Shown here: positions 10,280 to 15,876 of the stretch, in pieces | Position numbering within the stretch: the first letter of the stretch is position 1 | How the letters are laid out: every line of letters starts with the position of its first letter | Assembly (NCBI GenBank): GCA_016234495.1 | Contig: JACRBI010000040.1 | Span: 186,001-250,000 of the forward strand | Reading direction: 5' to 3' | Origin: Chloroflexota bacterium | Lineage (GTDB): Bacteria; Chloroflexota; Anaerolineae; Anaerolineales; Villigracilaceae | DNA: 64,000 bases | Notes under the pieces: model-generated | The model's database searches: none | Told to the model about the DNA's origin: nothing | Seen by the model: the letters and a program-made list of their open reading frames with translations, nothing else | Made by a program: the position numbers and the translations under genes

Positions 10280-12007
10280 TCAACTCTTTATCGTCTGTCT
10301 TGCGATCTGCAGAAGTTCATGCGCGGAACGCAGAGTCCCTTCGCCGACTTCGCCAAGCATCTGCGATAGTTCGAGCAGACGCGACTCGCCGTCGAGGTTT
10401 TCGACGCGAGTCAGCGTGCGGCCGTTATCCACCAGTTTTTGCACCTGATAATGCTGGTCGCCAAAGACCGCCAGCTGCGGAAGGTGCGTCACACAAAAAA
10501 CCTGATGCGTGCGCGATAGATTCCAAAGCTTATGGCCGACCACCATGCCCACCCGCCCGCCGATACCCTGGTCAATTTCATCGAAGATCAGCGACGGCAC
10601 TTCGTCGGCGCGCGCCATGACATTCTTCAAGCCGAGCATCAGGCGCGAGGTCTCTCCGCCGGAAGCGATCTTTGCCAGCGGCTTCAATCCTTCGCCGGGA
10701 TTGGGGGCGATCAAAAACTCCACGCGGTCGAATCCGTTCTGGTCAAATGCGATGCGTGTGCCATCGGGCATCGGCGCGCCGTTCAGATCGGGTTTGGTTT
10801 GGAAGTCCACGCCGAAGCGCGCAGACTGCATCTTCAAGTCGCCGAGTTCGGTTTCGATTCCCTTACCCATCGTGATTGCGGCAGATTTGCGTTTTTCAGA
10901 GAGAGCCGCGCCCTGCTTCGCCAGTTTTTCAAGCAGTTTCGCTTCTTGCATTTCGAGGTCAGCGATGCGTTCCGCCGCGCCGGTGATGGTCTCCAGTTGT
11001 TTGCGCGCGTCTGCGCCGTAAGCGATGACCGCCGGAATATTCCCGCCATATTTGCGCGTCAGCGAGTGGATCAAATCCAGCCGTTCTTCCACGGCTTCGA
11101 GCCGCTTCGGGTTAAATTCGATCTCCTCGAGATAATCGCGCAAACTATGGATGATATCCGAAATGGTATCGAGCAAAAGTTCGGCCTGATCCGCCAATTC
11201 CGCCTGGCCGGCATCTATCTTCGCAAGCGCTGCCAGCGCCTGCGCCGCCTGTCCGACGAGGTCAGTTGCAGCAGGCATTTCAGGCGAGCCTTCATCCAAA
11301 ACAGCCAAGGCCTCCTGCGCGTTCTGTGCAAGAGATTCCGCGTTGGCCAAGCGGTCACGCTCCTTGCGCAGTTCGTCATCTTCGCCGGGTTTCAACCGCG
11401 CCGATTCAATTTCCTCGGCTTGATAGGTGAGCATTTCAATGCGGCGGTCAGAGTCCGACTGCGCCTTGCGCAGGTCTGCGAGTTCGCGGCGCAAATTCAT
11501 CAGCGACTGATATGTCTGGCGGTAACTGCCAAGGGGCTGGTCAACTTCCGCGTAGCGATCGAGCAGGCCAAGGTGCGCGCGCGGATCGAGCAGGGAAAGA
11601 TGTTCCGCCTGTCCGTGGATGTCGATCAGCAGCGCGCCCAACTCCTTCAACAATCCAACATTCACCGTGCGGCCATTGATGCGCGCCACACTGCGCCCCT
11701 CCTTGCGGACTTCGCGCATGAGCGTGACGTAATTCGGATCATCCATTAATTCCTCGCGGTTGAGGATGAAGTTCACCGCTTCTTTTTCTGGACCTGTGAG
11801 TTGGAACACCGCTTCGACAAATGCGGCGTCTGAATCAGTGCGCACAAAAGTCGTATCGGCCTTGCCGCCGATCAGCATCACAACGGCATCAAGGATGATG
11901 GATTTGCCCGCGCCCGTTTCACCGGTCAGGATGATGAGCCCGGAATCAAAACGCAGATCGAGTTTGTCAATGATGGCAAAGTTTTGGATGTGAAGTTCGG
12001 TGAGCAT
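10280..12007 (-). CDS. recN: DNA repair protein RecN
   Basis: This 575-residue SMC-like ATPase has the RecN N-terminus MLTELHIQNFAIIDKLDL with Walker A GETGAGKSIILDA (about 31-43), two long coiled-coil arms in the middle, the signature LKPLAKIASGGETSRLMLGLK and Walker B SLIFDEIDQGIGG near the C-terminus. RecN tethers broken DNA ends and helps recombination repair at double-strand breaks. The length is normal. It is the third gene of a nadK / zinc-finger membrane protein / recN run, the same nadK-recN neighbourhood seen in many bacteria. The preceding gene stops only four bases upstream. Confidence 0.97.
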   Translation of the reverse strand: MLTELHIQNFAIIDKLDLRFDSGLIILTGETGAGKSIILDAVVMLIGGKADTTFVRTDSDAAFVEAVFQLTGPEKEAVNFILNREELMDDPNYVTLMREVRKEGRSVARINGRTVNVGLLKELGALLIDIHGQAEHLSLLDPRAHLGLLDRYAEVDQPLGSYRQTYQSLMNLRRELADLRKAQSDSDRRIEMLTYQAEEIESARLKPGEDDELRKERDRLANAESLAQNAQEALAVLDEGSPEMPAATDLVGQAAQALAALAKIDAGQAELADQAELLLDTISDIIHSLRDYLEEIEFNPKRLEAVEERLDLIHSLTRKYGGNIPAVIAYGADARKQLETITGAAERIADLEMQEAKLLEKLAKQGAALSEKRKSAAITMGKGIETELGDLKMQSARFGVDFQTKPDLNGAPMPDGTRIAFDQNGFDRVEFLIAPNPGEGLKPLAKIASGGETSRLMLGLKNVMARADEVPSLIFDEIDQGIGGRVGMVVGHKLWNLSRTHQVFCVTHLPQLAVFGDQHYQVQKLVDNGRTLTRVENLDGESRLLELSQMLGEVGEGTLRSAHELLQIARQTIKS

Positions 12008-12010
12008 GGG

Positions 12011-12532
12011 CTATCTCGACAATTGAATTCCGGAAAGCCGGGTGTAAACGAGCGGCACGGCAATCACAAGATAGATGGCTTGAAAGGCAATTCCAAAAAG
12101 GTTCATGGTCAATAATTGAAACAAAGCCACAGGCAGTGCGCCAACTGCGACGGCAACGGCGACAGTGGTGAACAAATTTTTCGAGCGGCGGCGGCGAGTG
12201 ACAAGGCGAACACTTTCAGCAATGGCGGCGCCGGCAACCGGCGCGCCGGCTGCAATCAGAAACCAGCCAAAGAACCCGATGCCGCCAATCAACGTGACGA
12301 GGAACGCCGCCACTGCCGAAAGAAATGAGGCGGTGATGAAACCCAGTGCATAGTCGTACCATTCAGCGGTGTCAAAGGATTTTTGATGTGAACGAACACA
12401 CTCCCTGCACAAATAGCCGGTGGGGGTGCGCTGGGCACAGGAGGCGCAGATCGGTTTTTCACAACGCTTGCAGCGCAGGGCGGTTTCCCGGTCAGGGTGG
12501 ATGTAACAATAAGTTGCGGTTGATTCGGTCAT
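12011..12532 (-). CDS. B-box-type zinc-finger membrane protein
   Basis: This 173-residue protein has a Cys/His-rich N-terminal segment (CYIHPDRETALRCKRC, then ICASCAQRTPTGYLCRECVRSHQ) with the spacing of a B-box zinc-binding module, followed by about four hydrophobic segments (about 55-170). Proteins of this layout are usually annotated as B-box zinc-finger membrane proteins of unknown function, and I cannot assign a role. Its ATG overlaps the nadK stop (ATGA) and its stop lies four bases before recN, so it is cotranscribed with both. Confidence 0.8.
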   Translation of the reverse strand: MTESTATYCYIHPDRETALRCKRCEKPICASCAQRTPTGYLCRECVRSHQKSFDTAEWYDYALGFITASFLSAVAAFLVTLIGGIGFFGWFLIAAGAPVAGAAIAESVRLVTRRRRSKNLFTTVAVAVAVGALPVALFQLLTMNLFGIAFQAIYLVIAVPLVYTRLSGIQLSR

Positions 12533-13392
12533 CGAGGAAATCCCAAAGAGTTTTCATTCATGTGTGCGGTCAGGTTGCGGTAGAAATAACCCGGGTCGCC
12601 AAAGCGGACAAATTGCGCGGTGACATCTGCGACGGTCACTTTGACCTGGTCGTCTTCCATCAACGGCGTCGGCAATTGACCGTCCACGCTCAGGACGGAG
12701 TTCTCGCTTTTTACAACGATGCTGACTGACGAGCCTTCTGACAGGACAACTGCGCGATCCACAGAAAGATGCGGCGCAATAGGCACGAGTAAAATATTTC
12801 TAAGCTCCGGCGGCAGAATCGGTCCGCCAGCCGCAAGCGCATAAGCCGTGGAGCCTGTGGCTGTTGAAGCGATGATTCCATCCGCAACGTAACTTGTCAG
12901 GCGGCGCCCGTCCACCGAAGCGGTCAAACGCACGGGACGCAGACTCTGTCCGCGGGCAACGACGACTTCATTGAGCGCGTTCGAACTGCCGAGGCTTTCG
13001 CCTGCGCGGATATGTTCCGCGTGGAGCATCATGCGGTTTTCGATCCACGCTTCGCCGTTGAATAATTTTTCAAGGTACTCGCGCCATTCATTGCGGTCAA
13101 TTTGGATTAAAAAACCCAGACGCCCAAGATTCACGCCGAGGATCGGTACGCCGCACGGAGCACATAAATGTCCCGCGCGCAGCACGCCCCCGTCGCCGCC
13201 GACAGCGATCAGCATGTCGAACTCGCCCTGCTTTACCCGTTTGCGGAGGTCTTCGTTGTACAAAGAATCGCACGGGGCATCAATGCCTTTTTCTTTTAAG
13301 TAGGCGGCCATCGCCTCCGCTTCTGCAAAGGCTTGCGGCATTTTTGGATAAGCCGTTACTACCAGTCGTGTGGGTATGAATGGTGCAGACAT
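12529..13392 (-). CDS. nadK: NAD kinase
   Basis: This 287-residue protein has the NAD-kinase GGDG motif in AVGGDGGVLRAG (about 62-73), the NLGRLGFL block, the NE/D block LNEVVVARG and the TGSTAYALAAGGPI block that contacts NAD. The enzyme phosphorylates NAD with ATP or polyphosphate to give NADP and is the sole NADP source in most bacteria. Length and motifs are normal. It is the first gene of the nadK / B-box / recN run. A TATAAT at 13402-13407 lies nine bases before the ATG, so its 5' leader is very short. Confidence 0.96.
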   Translation of the reverse strand: MSAPFIPTRLVVTAYPKMPQAFAEAEAMAAYLKEKGIDAPCDSLYNEDLRKRVKQGEFDMLIAVGGDGGVLRAGHLCAPCGVPILGVNLGRLGFLIQIDRNEWREYLEKLFNGEAWIENRMMLHAEHIRAGESLGSSNALNEVVVARGQSLRPVRLTASVDGRRLTSYVADGIIASTATGSTAYALAAGGPILPPELRNILLVPIAPHLSVDRAVVLSEGSSVSIVVKSENSVLSVDGQLPTPLMEDDQVKVTVADVTAQFVRFGDPGYFYRNLTAHMNENSLGFPR

Positions 13393-13519: not shown

Positions 13520-14032
13520 TCAAGCCAGAGTCTGATCACACGTGTTTCTGTATCCGCATTTTGCGCAGCGACCAGCCTGTTCATGTGAACGATGAACTTC
13601 TTTTTTGTGTTCATCGCGTTTCATTTCCACTAAAAGATCGGTCAGGGAATTTTCCAATTCAGGGGTGTAGTCTATCGCAAAGTCACGGTTTTCATAGTGA
13701 ATGATTCCATACGGTGGGCGCATGTCATAGGTCTTTTCCACAAGGAGACAATACGCCGCGAGCTGATAAATATGCGAATCATAGGGCGCTTCCGGTGCGC
13801 GGCCTGATTTGACTTCCACGGGAATGATCCTGTCGTTTTGCTGAATGAGATAATCCGGCTTGCCCGTTAAATTCAACGCGGGGTAAAAAAGCGGCTTCTC
13901 CACTTTTCCCCAACCATGCGTATCGGTGTAGATGATCCGTCCGCCGGGCAGGCCGGCTTCCTTCCGCTGGACAGAGGATTTGCGAAAGAAGAAGAGCGCA
14001 AAGACGAACAAAATAAGGGCAAGGTAGAGCAT
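13520..14032 (-). CDS. Cas4/Dna2-like PD-(D/E)XK nuclease, C-terminal half with membrane segment
   Basis: This 170-residue protein begins with a hydrophobic helix (LALILFVFALFFF). It then has the nuclease core: GKPDYLI (catalytic Asp), IIPVEVKSG (Glu and Lys), QLAAYCLLVE (motif IV), and three C-terminal cysteines in CAKCGYRNTC. In Cas4/Dna2-type (DUF83) nucleases three C-terminal Cys plus one N-terminal Cys bind a 4Fe-4S cluster. Here the N-terminal Cys and the motif-I His are missing from this protein but present in the gene two places upstream. The start lies eight bases after the HEAT-like gene's stop with no clear Shine-Dalgarno, suggesting coupling. It is probably one subunit of a split enzyme. 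The substrate is unknown. Confidence 0.72.
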   Translation of the reverse strand: MLYLALILFVFALFFFRKSSVQRKEAGLPGGRIIYTDTHGWGKVEKPLFYPALNLTGKPDYLIQQNDRIIPVEVKSGRAPEAPYDSHIYQLAAYCLLVEKTYDMRPPYGIIHYENRDFAIDYTPELENSLTDLLVEMKRDEHKKEVHRSHEQAGRCAKCGYRNTCDQTLA

Positions 14033-14040
14033 TTCAGTAA

Positions 14041-14685
14041 TCAGTGAACAGGTTGGATTTTTTCTGCGAGCCTGATGATTCTACCCAAGCGTGTGAATGC
14101 CGCGCCGGAGAGGTCATCATTTCTTTTTTTGAGGGTTTTGATAAACTGGTCTTTGTTGGATTCGTCGACGGCGGGCAGTGTCCTTTCTGCATGTTGCGGG
14201 ACTTCCTTGGGGCGGCAGGTTGATAAATGTTTGAGCAAATATGGGAAGATGACCTTGTTGTATTCCTCATTGGCTGCGGCGGTATGCGCCAGCGCGGAAA
14301 TGGAATTATCAATGGTGATAACCGAGCCTGCTTCCTTGGCTTTCTTGATTTCATCCAGGTGTTTAAATATAAAATCGGGATTTACTTTGGCAATTTCAGC
14401 GAGCGCGGTCATTGCGCCCCAGACCATGTTATTGTGTTTGCTTTTCAGCAGTTTTATAAAATCTTCAGCATACGGCGTGATAAGCTGCGGGTCAATCACG
14501 CCAATTTCATACATGACATGAATGCAATCCCAGTGGATATTTTTATTTTCATTCCACATATTTTTGGCGATCTCGCGAATGCCGTCCACGTCTTCCCGCG
14601 CGGCAAGGTCACGCGCCAGGTCAAGGTTGGGTGTTCGGTCGCGACGGGTTTGCAAATAGCCAAGACGATTTAATAAGCTGGACAT
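14041..14685 (-). CDS. HEAT-like alpha-helical repeat protein
   Basis: Starting at ATG 14685 (MSSLLNRLGYLQ), 214 residues remain. TAGGAA sits six bases upstream, made partly of the preceding gene's stop. The sequence is a run of paired helices (IREIAKNMWNENKNIHWDCIHV, YAEDFIKLLKSKHNNMVWGAMT, further pairs to the end), the look of a HEAT/armadillo-type solenoid, perhaps distantly AlkD-like. No catalytic motif is seen. Solenoids usually act as protein- or DNA-binding scaffolds. It is lodged between the two halves of the Cas4-like nuclease with gaps of seven and eight bases, so it may work with that enzyme. Confidence 0.6.
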   Translation of the reverse strand: MSSLLNRLGYLQTRRDRTPNLDLARDLAAREDVDGIREIAKNMWNENKNIHWDCIHVMYEIGVIDPQLITPYAEDFIKLLKSKHNNMVWGAMTALAEIAKVNPDFIFKHLDEIKKAKEAGSVITIDNSISALAHTAAANEEYNKVIFPYLLKHLSTCRPKEVPQHAERTLPAVDESNKDQFIKTLKKRNDDLSGAAFTRLGRIIRLAEKIQPVH

Positions 14686-14692
14686 GGGATTC

Positions 14693-14926
14693 CTATATTT
14701 GCGCCGTACAAAATGCCACCAGTGTGAGAATGGCCGCCAAAAGCAGGACCATGCCCACGGTCCGCAGTAGAAGCGCAGAGAGAGTTTTTCGTCCGTGTTG
14801 GCGGTGCAGTTCAGTGCCGGCGGAAAGTTCGGTTTGATTCTCCGACTCCACACCCAGCCTGCGGTAGCGCCAAGCACGGCGGCAGTAGAGATAACTTCCA
14901 ATTTCAGAGGCGCGGATGATCGGCAC
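14693..14926 (-). CDS. Cas4/Dna2-like nuclease, N-terminal half with membrane segment
   Basis: A GTG at 14926 gives 77 residues (VPIIRASEIGSYLYCRRAWRY). A TTG at 14944 is an alternative start. SYLYCRRAW carries the lone N-terminal cysteine and GTELHRQHG the motif-I histidine of Cas4/Dna2-type nucleases. A hydrophobic helix (LRTVGMVLLLAAILTLVAF) precedes the stop. All catalytic Asp/Glu/Lys and the other three cysteines are absent here but present in the gene at 13520-14032, which opens with a second hydrophobic helix. The two together make about 250 residues, a sensible full length with a membrane hairpin. TATACT ends six bases before the GTG. Confidence 0.68.
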   Translation of the reverse strand: MPIIRASEIGSYLYCRRAWRYRRLGVESENQTELSAGTELHRQHGRKTLSALLLRTVGMVLLLAAILTLVAFCTAQI

Positions 14927-14932
14927 GGGCAG

Positions 14933-14938
14933 AGTATA
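14933..14938 (-). promoter_or_regulatory. Extended -10 element before the split nuclease operon (leaderless GTG)
   Basis: TGCTATACT on the minus strand is an extended -10 (TGnTATACT) ending six bases before GTG 14926. That is the same six-base spacing as several other genes in the window, and it supports GTG rather than the upstream TTG as the start. Confidence 0.5.
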
Positions 14939-15027: not shown

Positions 15028-15579
15028 ATGACAAAACGCAAAACCTATTCGATTGAAATTGCCGGCATAAAACGCGAACTTACTTTATTTGAGATCAAAC
15101 CCGGTTTGCAGATCGCGATCTTGAACATCCTCGGAGATACTGAGCTGGTGCAGGCGTGCGCGCGCGAACTCGCAAAAAAACTTGCTGAAGTTGAATATGA
15201 CATCCTTGTAACGGCGGAAGCCAAGTCTATTCCGCTGGCGTATGCGCTCTCGGTTGAGACAGGCAAACCATACCTGGTGCTGCGCAAAACCTACAAGCCT
15301 TACATGGGCGATGCGCTCAAGGCGGAAACGCTTTCCATCACAACCGGCCAGCCGCAGTTGTTGATCCTGGACGAGAAAGACCTTGATTTCATTAAGGGTA
15401 AAAAAGCGGTCATCCTCGATGATGTGATCAGCACCGGCTCGACCCTGCAGGGGATGCGGATGATTCTCGACAAGGCAAATGCAAGCGTGGCGGCGGAGGC
15501 GGCCATTCTCACCGAAGGCGACCGCGCACAGTGGATGCATATTTATGCTCTTGGGCATCTGCCGTTGTTTACGGAGTAA
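15028..15579 (+). CDS. apt: Adenine phosphoribosyltransferase-like PRTase
   Basis: This 183-residue protein has the PRPP-binding signature AVILDDVISTGSTL (about 128-141) and the type I PRTase fold, with AEAKSIPLAYALSVETGKPY in the position of the conserved pyrophosphate/base loop of Apt. The enzyme would turn adenine (or a related purine) plus PRPP into AMP. The family is clear, but exact base preference is not provable from sequence. GGAGGAAAG stands seven bases before the ATG. It is monocistronic with a strong terminator behind it. Confidence 0.8.
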   Translation: MTKRKTYSIEIAGIKRELTLFEIKPGLQIAILNILGDTELVQACARELAKKLAEVEYDILVTAEAKSIPLAYALSVETGKPYLVLRKTYKPYMGDALKAETLSITTGQPQLLILDEKDLDFIKGKKAVILDDVISTGSTLQGMRMILDKANASVAAEAAILTEGDRAQWMHIYALGHLPLFTE

Positions 15580-15593
15580 TGAATGCAGGAACG

Positions 15594-15628
15594 AAAAAGC
15601 CCGGGAAAATTCCCGGGCTTTTTTTTAT
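15594..15628. terminator. Strong bidirectional intrinsic terminator
   Basis: AAAAAGCCCGGGAA and TTCCCGGGCTTTTT pair perfectly. A T-run follows on the plus strand and an A-run precedes it, so it can terminate both apt (plus) and the convergent GIY-YIG gene (minus). Confidence 0.92.
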
Positions 15629-15876
15629 TTGTTTGCACTTTCAATCAATCTGCTTTTTTGAACCCGCTTCATCTTTTTGATCGCAAGTTCGCGCTTCATC
15701 GCAGCGGCGCGGTCTGATTGCTCTTCCAGATAAACCAGTTTCACCGGACGGCGCGTGCTGGTGTACTTTGCACCGATTCCTTTGTTATGTTGTTTGACTC
15801 GCCGCCCGGGGTCGGTGGTCCAGCCGGTGTAAAAGGTTCCGTCTGAACATTCGAGGATGTAACAATAGCAGGTCAT
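15625..15876 (-). CDS. GIY-YIG domain protein (UPF0213/YhbQ-like)
   Basis: This 83-residue single-domain protein opens CYCYILECSDGTFYTGWT, the GIY-YIG beta hairpin (YIL...YTG), followed by RRVKQHN and a Glu in YLEEQ, as in the small YhbQ/UPF0213 group. These act on DNA ends or structures, and some members have weak nuclease activity. The real cellular role is uncertain. It overlaps the tyrA stop by four bases (ATGA) and is followed by the shared terminator. Confidence 0.87.
   Translation of the reverse strand: MTCYCYILECSDGTFYTGWTTDPGRRVKQHNKGIGAKYTSTRRPVKLVYLEEQSDRAAAMKRELAIKKMKRVQKSRLIESANK

What the first reader, a model, noticed from the sequence alone, without database searches (positions are those of the whole stretch)
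13520..14938. Cas4/Dna2-like membrane nuclease split into two genes with a HEAT-like gene lodged between
The N-terminal gene (14693-14926) has the single Fe-S cysteine and motif-I His plus a membrane helix and then stops. The C-terminal gene (13520-14032) begins with a membrane helix and has the Asp/Glu-x-Lys, motif IV and three cysteines. Together they make one complete, four-cysteine, helix-hairpin nuclease. The gene between them (214 residues, solenoid-like) fits with gaps of only seven and eight bases. The break falls precisely in the loop between two membrane helices, so two halves could still pair in the membrane. This could be a new three-part nuclease complex, not a CRISPR adaptation gene.
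Basis: partly seen in the sequence, partly recalled or inferred. Interest (0 to 1): 0.85.

Follow-up and report, generated by a model that had tools for sequence, protein, structure and literature searches.

The report
Cas4-like membrane nuclease in two genes
Many bacteria of the phylum Chloroflexota, and a few plasmids of other phyla, appear to build one membrane-anchored DNA-cutting enzyme of the Cas4 kind from two separate proteins that each carry part of the active site, and the solenoid gene lodged between them in this genome looks like an optional passenger.

Summary
N (14926-14693) and C (14032-13520) match adjacent, non-overlapping parts of the Cas4 profile (positions 2-45 and 58-178 of 180). 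N ends in a membrane helix and C begins with one. It is not a sequencing error: N and C are separate genes in 50 of 54 relatives' loci (the other four are cut or lack N nearby), in 49 of 60 inspected strong loci across the phylum (the other 11 genomes have N elsewhere) and in 78 of 80 named loci (two cut). In 300 Chloroflexota genomes, strong C and strong N occur in the same 76. The same split, at the same membrane-hairpin loop, occurs on Bacillus subtilis and planctomycete plasmids. All 43 sampled split forms lie on one side of a supported branch from 28 complete Cas4s. A natural in-frame read-through is predicted to fold as Cas4 (pLDDT 88, Z 19.8) with an inserted helical hairpin. The HEAT/ARM gene is probably not a third subunit: it is in 6 of 300 genomes, changes state five or six times, and one genome has it without a C match. 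Most likely: an obligate two-chain, membrane-tethered Fe-S nuclease outside CRISPR. Activity, pairing and role are untested.

The parts
14693..14926 (-). N subunit gene (77 aa, GTG start): Cas4 N-terminal Fe-S cysteine (C15), motif-I His (H41), then a single C-terminal membrane helix
   Evidence: TIGR00372 positions 2-45; C15 and H41 invariant in 23 aligned sequences
13520..14032 (-). C subunit gene (170 aa): initial membrane helix, then the nuclease core (D60, E73, K75, Q90, Y94) and three Fe-S cysteines (C156, C159, C165)
   Evidence: (TIGR00372 positions 58-178, 70 bits; PF01930 42.3 bits)
14041..14685 (-). HEAT/ARM-type solenoid gene (214 aa) lodged between N and C; by distribution an optional passenger
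   Evidence: pLDDT 90.8; best rows are armadillo solenoids, Z 16.5
14686..14692 (-). 7-base gap N-H
14033..14040 (-). 8-base gap H-C
12529..13392 (-). NAD kinase, next gene downstream; same cluster near the locus in 9 of 51 neighbourhoods compared (context, not part of the nuclease)
10280..12007 (-). RecN-like gene further downstream on the same strand (context; the name RecN is recalled from the sequence, no family scan was run on it); cluster F1 in 11 of 51 neighbourhoods compared

Best explanation
N and C are the two obligate subunits of one membrane-anchored, Cas4-like Fe-S nuclease. Shown here: the sequence complementarity, the conserved break point, the co-inheritance even when the genes are unlinked, and a predicted joint fold. 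Inferred: N goes into the membrane with its soluble head in the cytoplasm and its C-terminus out, and C with its N-terminus out and its nuclease core in the cytoplasm. The two helices pair in the membrane as the hairpin does in the joined model. The heads close into one Cas4 fold in which the Fe-S cluster takes one cysteine from N and three from C, and the metal site takes His from N and Asp, Glu and Lys from C. Neither chain should be active alone. The enzyme would cut DNA, most likely single strands or ends, at the inner face of the cytoplasmic membrane. The role, processing or destroying DNA that enters or is exposed at the membrane, is a guess from location and relatives only. The HEAT/ARM gene between them in this genus is an optional insertion.
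For: Profile tiling: N matches TIGR00372 at 2-45, C at 58-178; the joined read-through of a relative scores 95.6 bits in two stretches. In the N profile's weak match to the solved Cas4 8d3l_I (E 0.057), the N cysteine and His fall on that protein's Cys and His. Invariants: N Cys15 and His41 in 23 of 23, C Asp, Glu, Lys and three Cys in 25 of 25 aligned relatives. Co-occurrence: strong C (E<1e-40) in 76 of 300 genomes, strong N (E<=1e-14) in the same 76. In 11 of the 60 strong loci fetched N is not in the locus but is elsewhere in the genome, on one contig with C in G247, G344 and G305. The N genes of 10 of these 11 were fetched; all 10 keep Cys, His and a terminal hydrophobic stretch. Break point. 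Charge: median 3 Lys+Arg on the presumed inner side of both helices, 0 after the N helix. Selection: median dN/dS 0.19 (N, 273 pairs) and 0.094 (C, 100 pairs). Fold: natural in-frame read-through of L183, pLDDT 88.2, pTM 0.83; Z 19.8, rmsd 2.6 over 180 residues to the Cas4 part of 7mi4, spanning model residues 1-252. Natural fusion L130. Same split on B. subtilis and planctomycete plasmids. One side of a 99/98 branch against 28 complete Cas4s.
Against: No experiment: pairing, Fe-S binding and activity are not shown. The structure was predicted from a read-through chain with N and C on one string, and 7 of its 74 alignment rows carry both halves, so it does not show that two chains meet. Against the solved sequences the joined profile does not score better than the C profile alone (8d3l_I: 23.5 bits, of which 4.6 in the N part; C profile 27.4), and the top match of the N profile is a designed helical protein matched through the hydrophobic helix. 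The N genes of the planctomycete plasmids have no or only marginal profile matches and are recognised by place, Cys, His and helix. Relatedness of genomes inflates the co-occurrence count. In a diverged second tier catalytic residues change (14 of 149 C-type matches lack Asp, Glu or Lys at a catalytic position; that set includes complete Cas4s and one truncated match, and six have Asp for Glu) and 10 of 129 N-type matches show no aligned His, so part of the group may not be a nuclease. Cas1 (E<1e-29) is commoner in genomes with strong C (54 of 76) than without (59 of 224); that is confounded by lineage, but a CRISPR link is not excluded. No gene neighbour is shared across lineages to point to a role.
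Confidence: 0.75

Rival explanations
1. Three-part complex: N, the HEAT/ARM protein and C act together.
For: Tight packing with 7 and 8 base gaps; a full-length H lies between N and C in 35 of the 80 nearest named loci; H is under purifying selection (median dN/dS 0.09, but only 9 usable pairs); a solenoid could be a binding scaffold.
Against: H matches in 6 of 300 phylum genomes and 21 of 61 relatives, while C is in 125 of 300 (76 strong) and 54 of 61. G053 has H without a C match. H changes state 6 times on the C tree, 5 if the cut locus L006 is not counted. Other genes fill the same slot in L035, L152 and L092.
Confidence: 0.08
2. Degenerating relic: a once fused nuclease broke, and N and C persist as decaying or separately reused pieces.
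For: Second-tier members have changed catalytic residues; one plasmid copy (L276) is broken beside an IS701 transposase.
Against: Invariant Cys, His, Asp, Glu and Lys across the order, low dN/dS, co-inheritance in 76 of 76 strong genomes, also when unlinked.
Confidence: 0.07
3. A membrane DNA-binding or sensing complex that kept the Fe-S fold but does not need catalysis; the nuclease motifs matter only in some lineages.
For: In L135 and L140 the E-x-K motif is changed while the three Cys stay.
Against: The 14 deviating sequences listed all lie in L122-L140 (second tier or complete Cas4s); no strong-group C in that set deviates at Asp, Glu or Lys.
Confidence: 0.1
4. CRISPR adaptation part: a dedicated membrane Cas4 working with Cas1-Cas2 encoded elsewhere.
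For: 54 of the 76 strong genomes have a strong Cas1 match (E<1e-29), 6 a weak one; the window's own genome has a weak one (E 2.4e-8); C is called cas4 by the equivalog model.
Against: 16 of 76 have no Cas1 match. No cas gene among the three neighbouring genes that were scanned. Several of the same genomes carry separate, complete Cas4s.
Confidence: 0.05

Closest known systems
CRISPR Cas4 (TIGR00372 / PF01930; solved examples 8d3l type I-C, 7mi4 Cas4/Cas1, 4ic1 SSO0001, 4r5q)
   Same: PD-(D/E)XK core, N-terminal Cys plus C-terminal CxxC...C, motif-I His, same predicted fold (Z 19.8 to 7mi4_A)
   Different: Two polypeptides, a membrane helix in each, no cas gene among the neighbours scanned, and a separate branch from the 28 complete Cas4s tested (99/98)
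solo-Cas4 (Hudaiberdiev et al. 2017, PMC5704561; abstract and passages seen)
   Same: Outside CRISPR loci, mainly vertical inheritance, reported in many Chloroflexi
   Different: The passages seen describe one family with four conserved cysteines, and the words split and transmembrane do not occur in the main text; whether their Chloroflexi solo-Cas4s include the C halves could not be checked (supplements not available)
Argonaute-associated Cas4-family protein ACE1 (PDB 9iac, 9iab; entry titles only)
   Same: Cas4-like fold (Z 11.8 and 11.3); Argonaute-associated by its title
   Different: Chains of 266-269 residues in the listing; no Argonaute gene among the three neighbouring genes scanned here
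AdnAB / AddAB / EXO5 / Dna2 nuclease domains
   Same: Same nuclease fold in the model comparison
   Different: Parts of helicases or eukaryotic repair enzymes; no membrane hairpin split (recalled knowledge)
HEAT/ARM solenoids (PF13646, DVU0298 family NF045662)
   Same: H is predicted as an ARM/HEAT solenoid
   Different: H scores below the curated cut-offs of all families found

Membership tests
Cas4 (TIGR00372 / PF01930) | Sequence match above the curated cut-off | tested here: met
   C of the window: TIGR00372 70.0 bits (cut-off 65), PF01930 42.3 (22.7); N alone is below the cut-offs (20.1 and 11.9). The plasmid C halves are below the TIGR00372 cut-off (58.7, 46.7, 44.6)
Cas4 (TIGR00372 / PF01930) | PD-(D/E)XK catalytic residues | tested here: met
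   D60, E73, K75 and Q90 invariant in 25 relatives; His41 of N invariant in 23
Cas4 (TIGR00372 / PF01930) | Four conserved cysteines in the protein (stated for all members in PMC5704561) | tested here: not met
   Three in C and one conserved in N; met only by the pair
Cas4 (TIGR00372 / PF01930) | One complete chain | tested here: not met
   Separate ORFs in 50 of 54 relatives' loci, the other 4 cut or without N in the locus, and in 78 of 80 named loci, the other 2 cut at contig ends
Cas4 (TIGR00372 / PF01930) | Cas4 fold | tested here: met
   Predicted only, on the joined read-through of L183: Z 19.8
Cas4 (TIGR00372 / PF01930) | Fe-S cluster and nuclease activity | not testable with these tools
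   Needs protein
CRISPR-associated Cas4 (CAS-Cas4) | Next to cas1/cas2 | tested here: not met
   The genes next to it are NAD kinase and an APRT-like gene, then a B-box gene
solo-Cas4 | cas4 gene outside CRISPR and other characterised contexts | tested here: met
solo-Cas4 | Belongs to the Chloroflexi solo-Cas4 clade of PMC5704561 | not testable with these tools
   Their tree is in supplements that were not available
HEAT_2 / DVU0298 (for H) | Score above the curated cut-off | tested here: not met
   HEAT_2 14.8 of 27.7; NF045662 21.6 of 75

The most novel reading that the evidence does not exclude
A distinct, ancient family of obligate two-chain nucleases, found so far in Chloroflexota and on Bacillota and Planctomycetota plasmids, in which two single-pass membrane proteins complete one Fe-S cluster and one active site across the subunit boundary. 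This makes a membrane-face DNA nuclease, possibly a gate on single-stranded DNA entering the cell, that works only once both halves are in the membrane.
Probability: 0.35. Interest if true: 0.87.

Novelty: new variant of a known kind. Interest (0 to 1): 0.72.

Why it matters
Solo-Cas4 genes are common in some groups and their function outside CRISPR is an open question (PMC5704561, abstract and passages). Here a whole group has its catalytic and Fe-S residues divided between two membrane proteins whose genes can even sit far apart and are still inherited together. If it holds, it gives a concrete, testable case of a Cas4-like enzyme fixed to the membrane, a natural two-part nuclease design, and a gene pair that automatic annotation can miss, because the N half is listed as a hypothetical protein in the four plasmid records with an intact pair that were fetched.

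Tried and rejected
Sequencing error or assembly frameshift as the cause of the split: rejected by the loci (one N, L026, does carry a frameshift of its own). Programmed frameshift joining N to C: not compatible with an insert of about 650 bases, with unlinked genes, or with the mixed relative frames. H as a subunit: see rivals. A competence link by co-distribution with ComEC (PF03772): uninformative, because ComEC is in 276 of 300 genomes. A shared gene neighbour: none across lineages in 51 neighbourhoods; NAD kinase, the B-box/TM gene and the RecN-like gene recur in Anaerolineales loci, RseP/CdsA-like genes in families f33, f43 and f66, a translin-like gene in three loci; these names are recalled except NAD kinase and B-box. 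Viral homologues: none confirmed in 4 scans of viral contigs, which look only for a few exact peptide patterns, and none in phage records for three C queries. Literature: searches (open-access papers only) listed no paper on a split or membrane Cas4 that I could recognise from title and abstract; PMC5704561, PMC10653904 and PMC4158269 were seen as abstract and/or passages, all others as listings. Solved-structure profile searches with the joined and the N profile gave no gain over C alone. Script errors: searches stopped part way; their printed parts were used and completed. In one search the mark FUSED at L086 rests on a 6-bit match and was set aside. One search recounts with L006 left out, because its contig ends just upstream and shows the tail of an H.
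Full report
What is there. On the minus strand the window has three genes in a row: N (14926-14693, 77 aa), H (14685-14041, 214 aa) and C (14032-13520, 170 aa), with gaps of 7 and 8 bases. A divergent adenine phosphoribosyltransferase-like gene lies upstream (15028-15579), and an NAD kinase, a B-box/membrane gene and a RecN-like gene follow downstream (the name RecN is recalled). N matches positions 2-45 and C positions 58-178 of the 180-position Cas4 profile TIGR00372; C alone passes the cut-off at 70 bits, N alone is far below it. C is the only PF01930 match at E<=1e-3 in the window's own genome.

It is not an error, and not young. In 61 genomes (the window's own and 60 relatives), C is found in 54. 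N is found as a separate gene at 50 of these 54 loci. In the other four it is cut by the edge of the locus or contig (L005, L041), lies beyond the contig end (L006), or was not found in the locus (L049; not sought elsewhere). One of the 50 (L026, a genome of 78% completeness) has a frameshift inside N. In 300 phylum genomes of at least 90% completeness, C matches at E<=1e-3 in 125 and strongly (E<1e-40) in 76. Of those 76 I fetched the loci of 60. N lies upstream in the same locus as a separate gene in 49 (partly cut in L062). In the other 11 (G089, G145, G198, G247, G288, G297, G302, G305, G316, G329, G344) it is not in the locus, but the genome has it elsewhere. The 16 strong genomes whose loci were not fetched also have N; in one of them, G310, the N matches are on a contig edge and with a stop inside. 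In the named collection, 78 of 80 loci have separate N and C (N partly cut in L222) and two are cut at contig starts. The 80 record titles name Anaerolineales, Anaerolineae, Chloroflexi/Chloroflexota, or genera and families that I recall as Chloroflexota; these are the best 80 of 406 that the scan confirmed.

Co-inheritance. Strong N (E<=1e-14) and strong C are present in the same 76 of 300 genomes (from the lists). The genomes are related, so the 300 are not independent. The unlinked cases are the better evidence. In G247, G344 and G305 both genes lie on one contig, about 180 kb or more apart. I read the N proteins of 10 of the 11 unlinked genomes; all keep the cysteine, the His and a terminal hydrophobic stretch. 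One divergent member, L130, is a natural fusion with both parts and hydrophobic stretches between.

The break point. Across 108 distinct N and 119 distinct C sequences, the N hydrophobic window ends a median 3 residues from the C-terminus (maximum 13) and the C window starts a median 0 residues from the start. Of the C sequences, 7 of 119 fall below a mean hydropathy of 1.6 and 6 of 119 have the window more than 8 residues in; no N falls below 1.6. Positive charge is on the presumed inner side of both helices. So the coding sequence is divided in the short outer loop of a helical hairpin. By contrast, the 28 complete Cas4 ORFs sampled carry the N-terminal cysteine region in the same ORF, and 27 of 28 show no window above 1.7; the exception is L298 at 2.26.

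Beyond the phylum. A protein search of plasmids with C found 17 records. The best were three Bacillus subtilis plasmids and Paludisphaera borealis PALBO2. In the two B. subtilis plasmids fetched and in PALBO2, the gene just before C is an annotated 'hypothetical protein' with Cys, His and a terminal helix. A second search with the PALBO2 C found two more planctomycete plasmids: Singulisphaera pSINAC03, typed as conjugative, has the same pair, and a copy in pPL62-2 is broken next to an IS701 transposase. The Bacillus N matches Cas4 profiles at their start (for example 21.4 bits, E 1.8e-4), but the planctomycete N proteins match only marginally (PALBO2, E 0.03 or worse in PADLOC) or not to Cas4 at all (pSINAC03), and the plasmid C proteins are below the TIGR00372 cut-off. 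The other matches were cas4 genes of Thermus (11) and Deinococcus (1), and one unannotated place. No phage or viral contig match was confirmed. A tree of the soluble nuclease part puts all 43 sampled split forms (40 Chloroflexota, 3 plasmid) on one side of a 99/98 branch against 28 complete Cas4s. Two rows have long branches (one of them the Bacillus plasmid C), the tree is unrooted, and the complete set came from matches to the C profile in this phylum plus two plasmids, so chromosomes of other phyla are not sampled.

Fold. For L183, a named relative whose N and C lie in the same frame with one stop and one codon between, I read through the stop with NCBI table 6 and modelled the chain. It gave mean pLDDT 88.2 and pTM 0.83, with two long helices, 31-78 and 84-107, between the N head and the nuclease core. 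Comparison with solved structures gave Z 19.8 (180 residues, 2.6 A) to the Cas4 part of 7mi4_A, 18.3 to 8d3l_I, then AdnA-AdnB, SSO0001 and human EXO5. Foldseek also ranks a Cas4 complex first (E 2.6e-6). The N profile on its own aligns, weakly (E 0.057), to the solved Cas4 8d3l_I with Cys on Cys and His on His, behind a designed helical protein matched through the hydrophobic part. The joined profile does not score better on 8d3l_I than the C profile alone (23.5 against 27.4 bits). The model has both halves on one chain, so it supports a shared fold, not a proven heterodimer.

Motifs. In 25 aligned C proteins Asp60, Glu73, Lys75, Gln90, Tyr94 and three cysteines are invariant; in 23 N proteins Cys15 and His41 are. 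In a wider set of 149 C-type matches, which includes diverged members, complete Cas4s and some genomes twice, Asp is kept in 141, Glu in 137 (six have Asp), Lys in 146 and each of the three cysteines in 147. All 14 sequences lacking Asp, Glu or Lys lie in L122-L140, the diverged or complete classes; one of them is a truncated match. Of 129 N-type matches 126 keep Cys (the 3 others are cut off) and 119 show His (10 do not, all diverged members). Median dN/dS within the genus is 0.19 for N (273 pairs), 0.094 for C (100 pairs) and 0.09 for H (9 pairs).

The middle gene. H is an ARM/HEAT-type solenoid by prediction (pLDDT 90.8; best structural rows are designed armadillo repeats, Z 16.5, an arrangement common to many solenoids). 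It matches in 21 of 61 relatives and 6 of 300 phylum genomes. Among genomes with kinship codes a full-length H lies between N and C only in the window's genus, with a short H-like stretch in G283; among the 80 nearest named loci 35 have a full-length one. It is doubled in G009 and G333 and occurs away from N-C in G040, G049, G053, G058 and G068; G053 has no C match. On the C tree its presence changes 6 times, 4 of them forced by well-supported branches; without L006, whose contig ends inside what looks like an H, it is 5. Other lineages have a different gene in the same slot (L035, L152, L092). It is therefore most likely a passenger in a tolerated insertion site, not a third subunit.

CRISPR and role. 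Of the 76 strong genomes, 54 have a strong Cas1 match (E<1e-29), 6 a weak one and 16 none; among the other 224, 59 have a strong one. So a CRISPR link is not needed but not fully excluded. ComEC is nearly universal (276 of 300) and tells nothing. A Cas4-like gene in Synechococcus elongatus was found to reduce transfer or maintenance of an RSF1010 plasmid (PMC10653904, abstract and passages), and solo-Cas4 is proposed to have unknown defence or repair roles (PMC5704561, abstract and passages). Together with the membrane helices this makes DNA entry or membrane-proximal repair the best guess, at low confidence.

Verdict. A real two-gene form of a Cas4-like nuclease that my literature searches did not find described (open-access papers only), ancient and conserved, with the solenoid gene as a probable bystander. 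Sequence and motif sharing are well supported; assembly, activity and role await experiment.

Noticed in passing
L130 (G222), minus strand ORF 1351-2490 of the reversed locus: A natural fusion of the N and C parts in a diverged lineage, with the catalytic Asp replaced by Ala.
   Followed up: partly
L135, L140, L124, L131: Diverged split pairs with changed catalytic residues (E-x-K changed in L135 and L140) but with the three cysteines kept; possible non-catalytic relatives.
   Followed up: partly
L092 921-1694; L152 4160-4609; L035 slot: Other genes sit between N and C: a YkuD-like (recalled) gene in L092, lipoprotein-like genes (recalled) in L152 and L035. The slot seems open to insertions.
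   Followed up: partly
L149 6673-7940; L161 6641-7915; G333:C13: The HEAT gene is doubled in tandem between N and C.
   Followed up: no
L276 2337-2836: Planctomycete plasmid copy of C broken into two frames, close to an IS701 transposase.
   Followed up: no
L275 (pSINAC03): The split pair lies on a conjugative planctomycete plasmid near a MobF relaxase and an N-6 DNA methylase.
   Followed up: partly
window 12011-12532: Gene with a marginal B-box zinc-finger match and hydrophobic stretches between NAD kinase and the RecN-like gene; its cluster recurs in 10 of 51 neighbourhoods compared.
   Followed up: partly
L268 4855-5511, L269 5876-6595, L272 132-1175: A translin-like gene (name recalled, no scan) lies upstream of the nuclease genes in three loci of other families.
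   Followed up: no
window 15625-15876: Small gene that looks like a GIY-YIG nuclease (recalled, no scan); it recurs near the locus in two other contigs (L151, L195).
   Followed up: no
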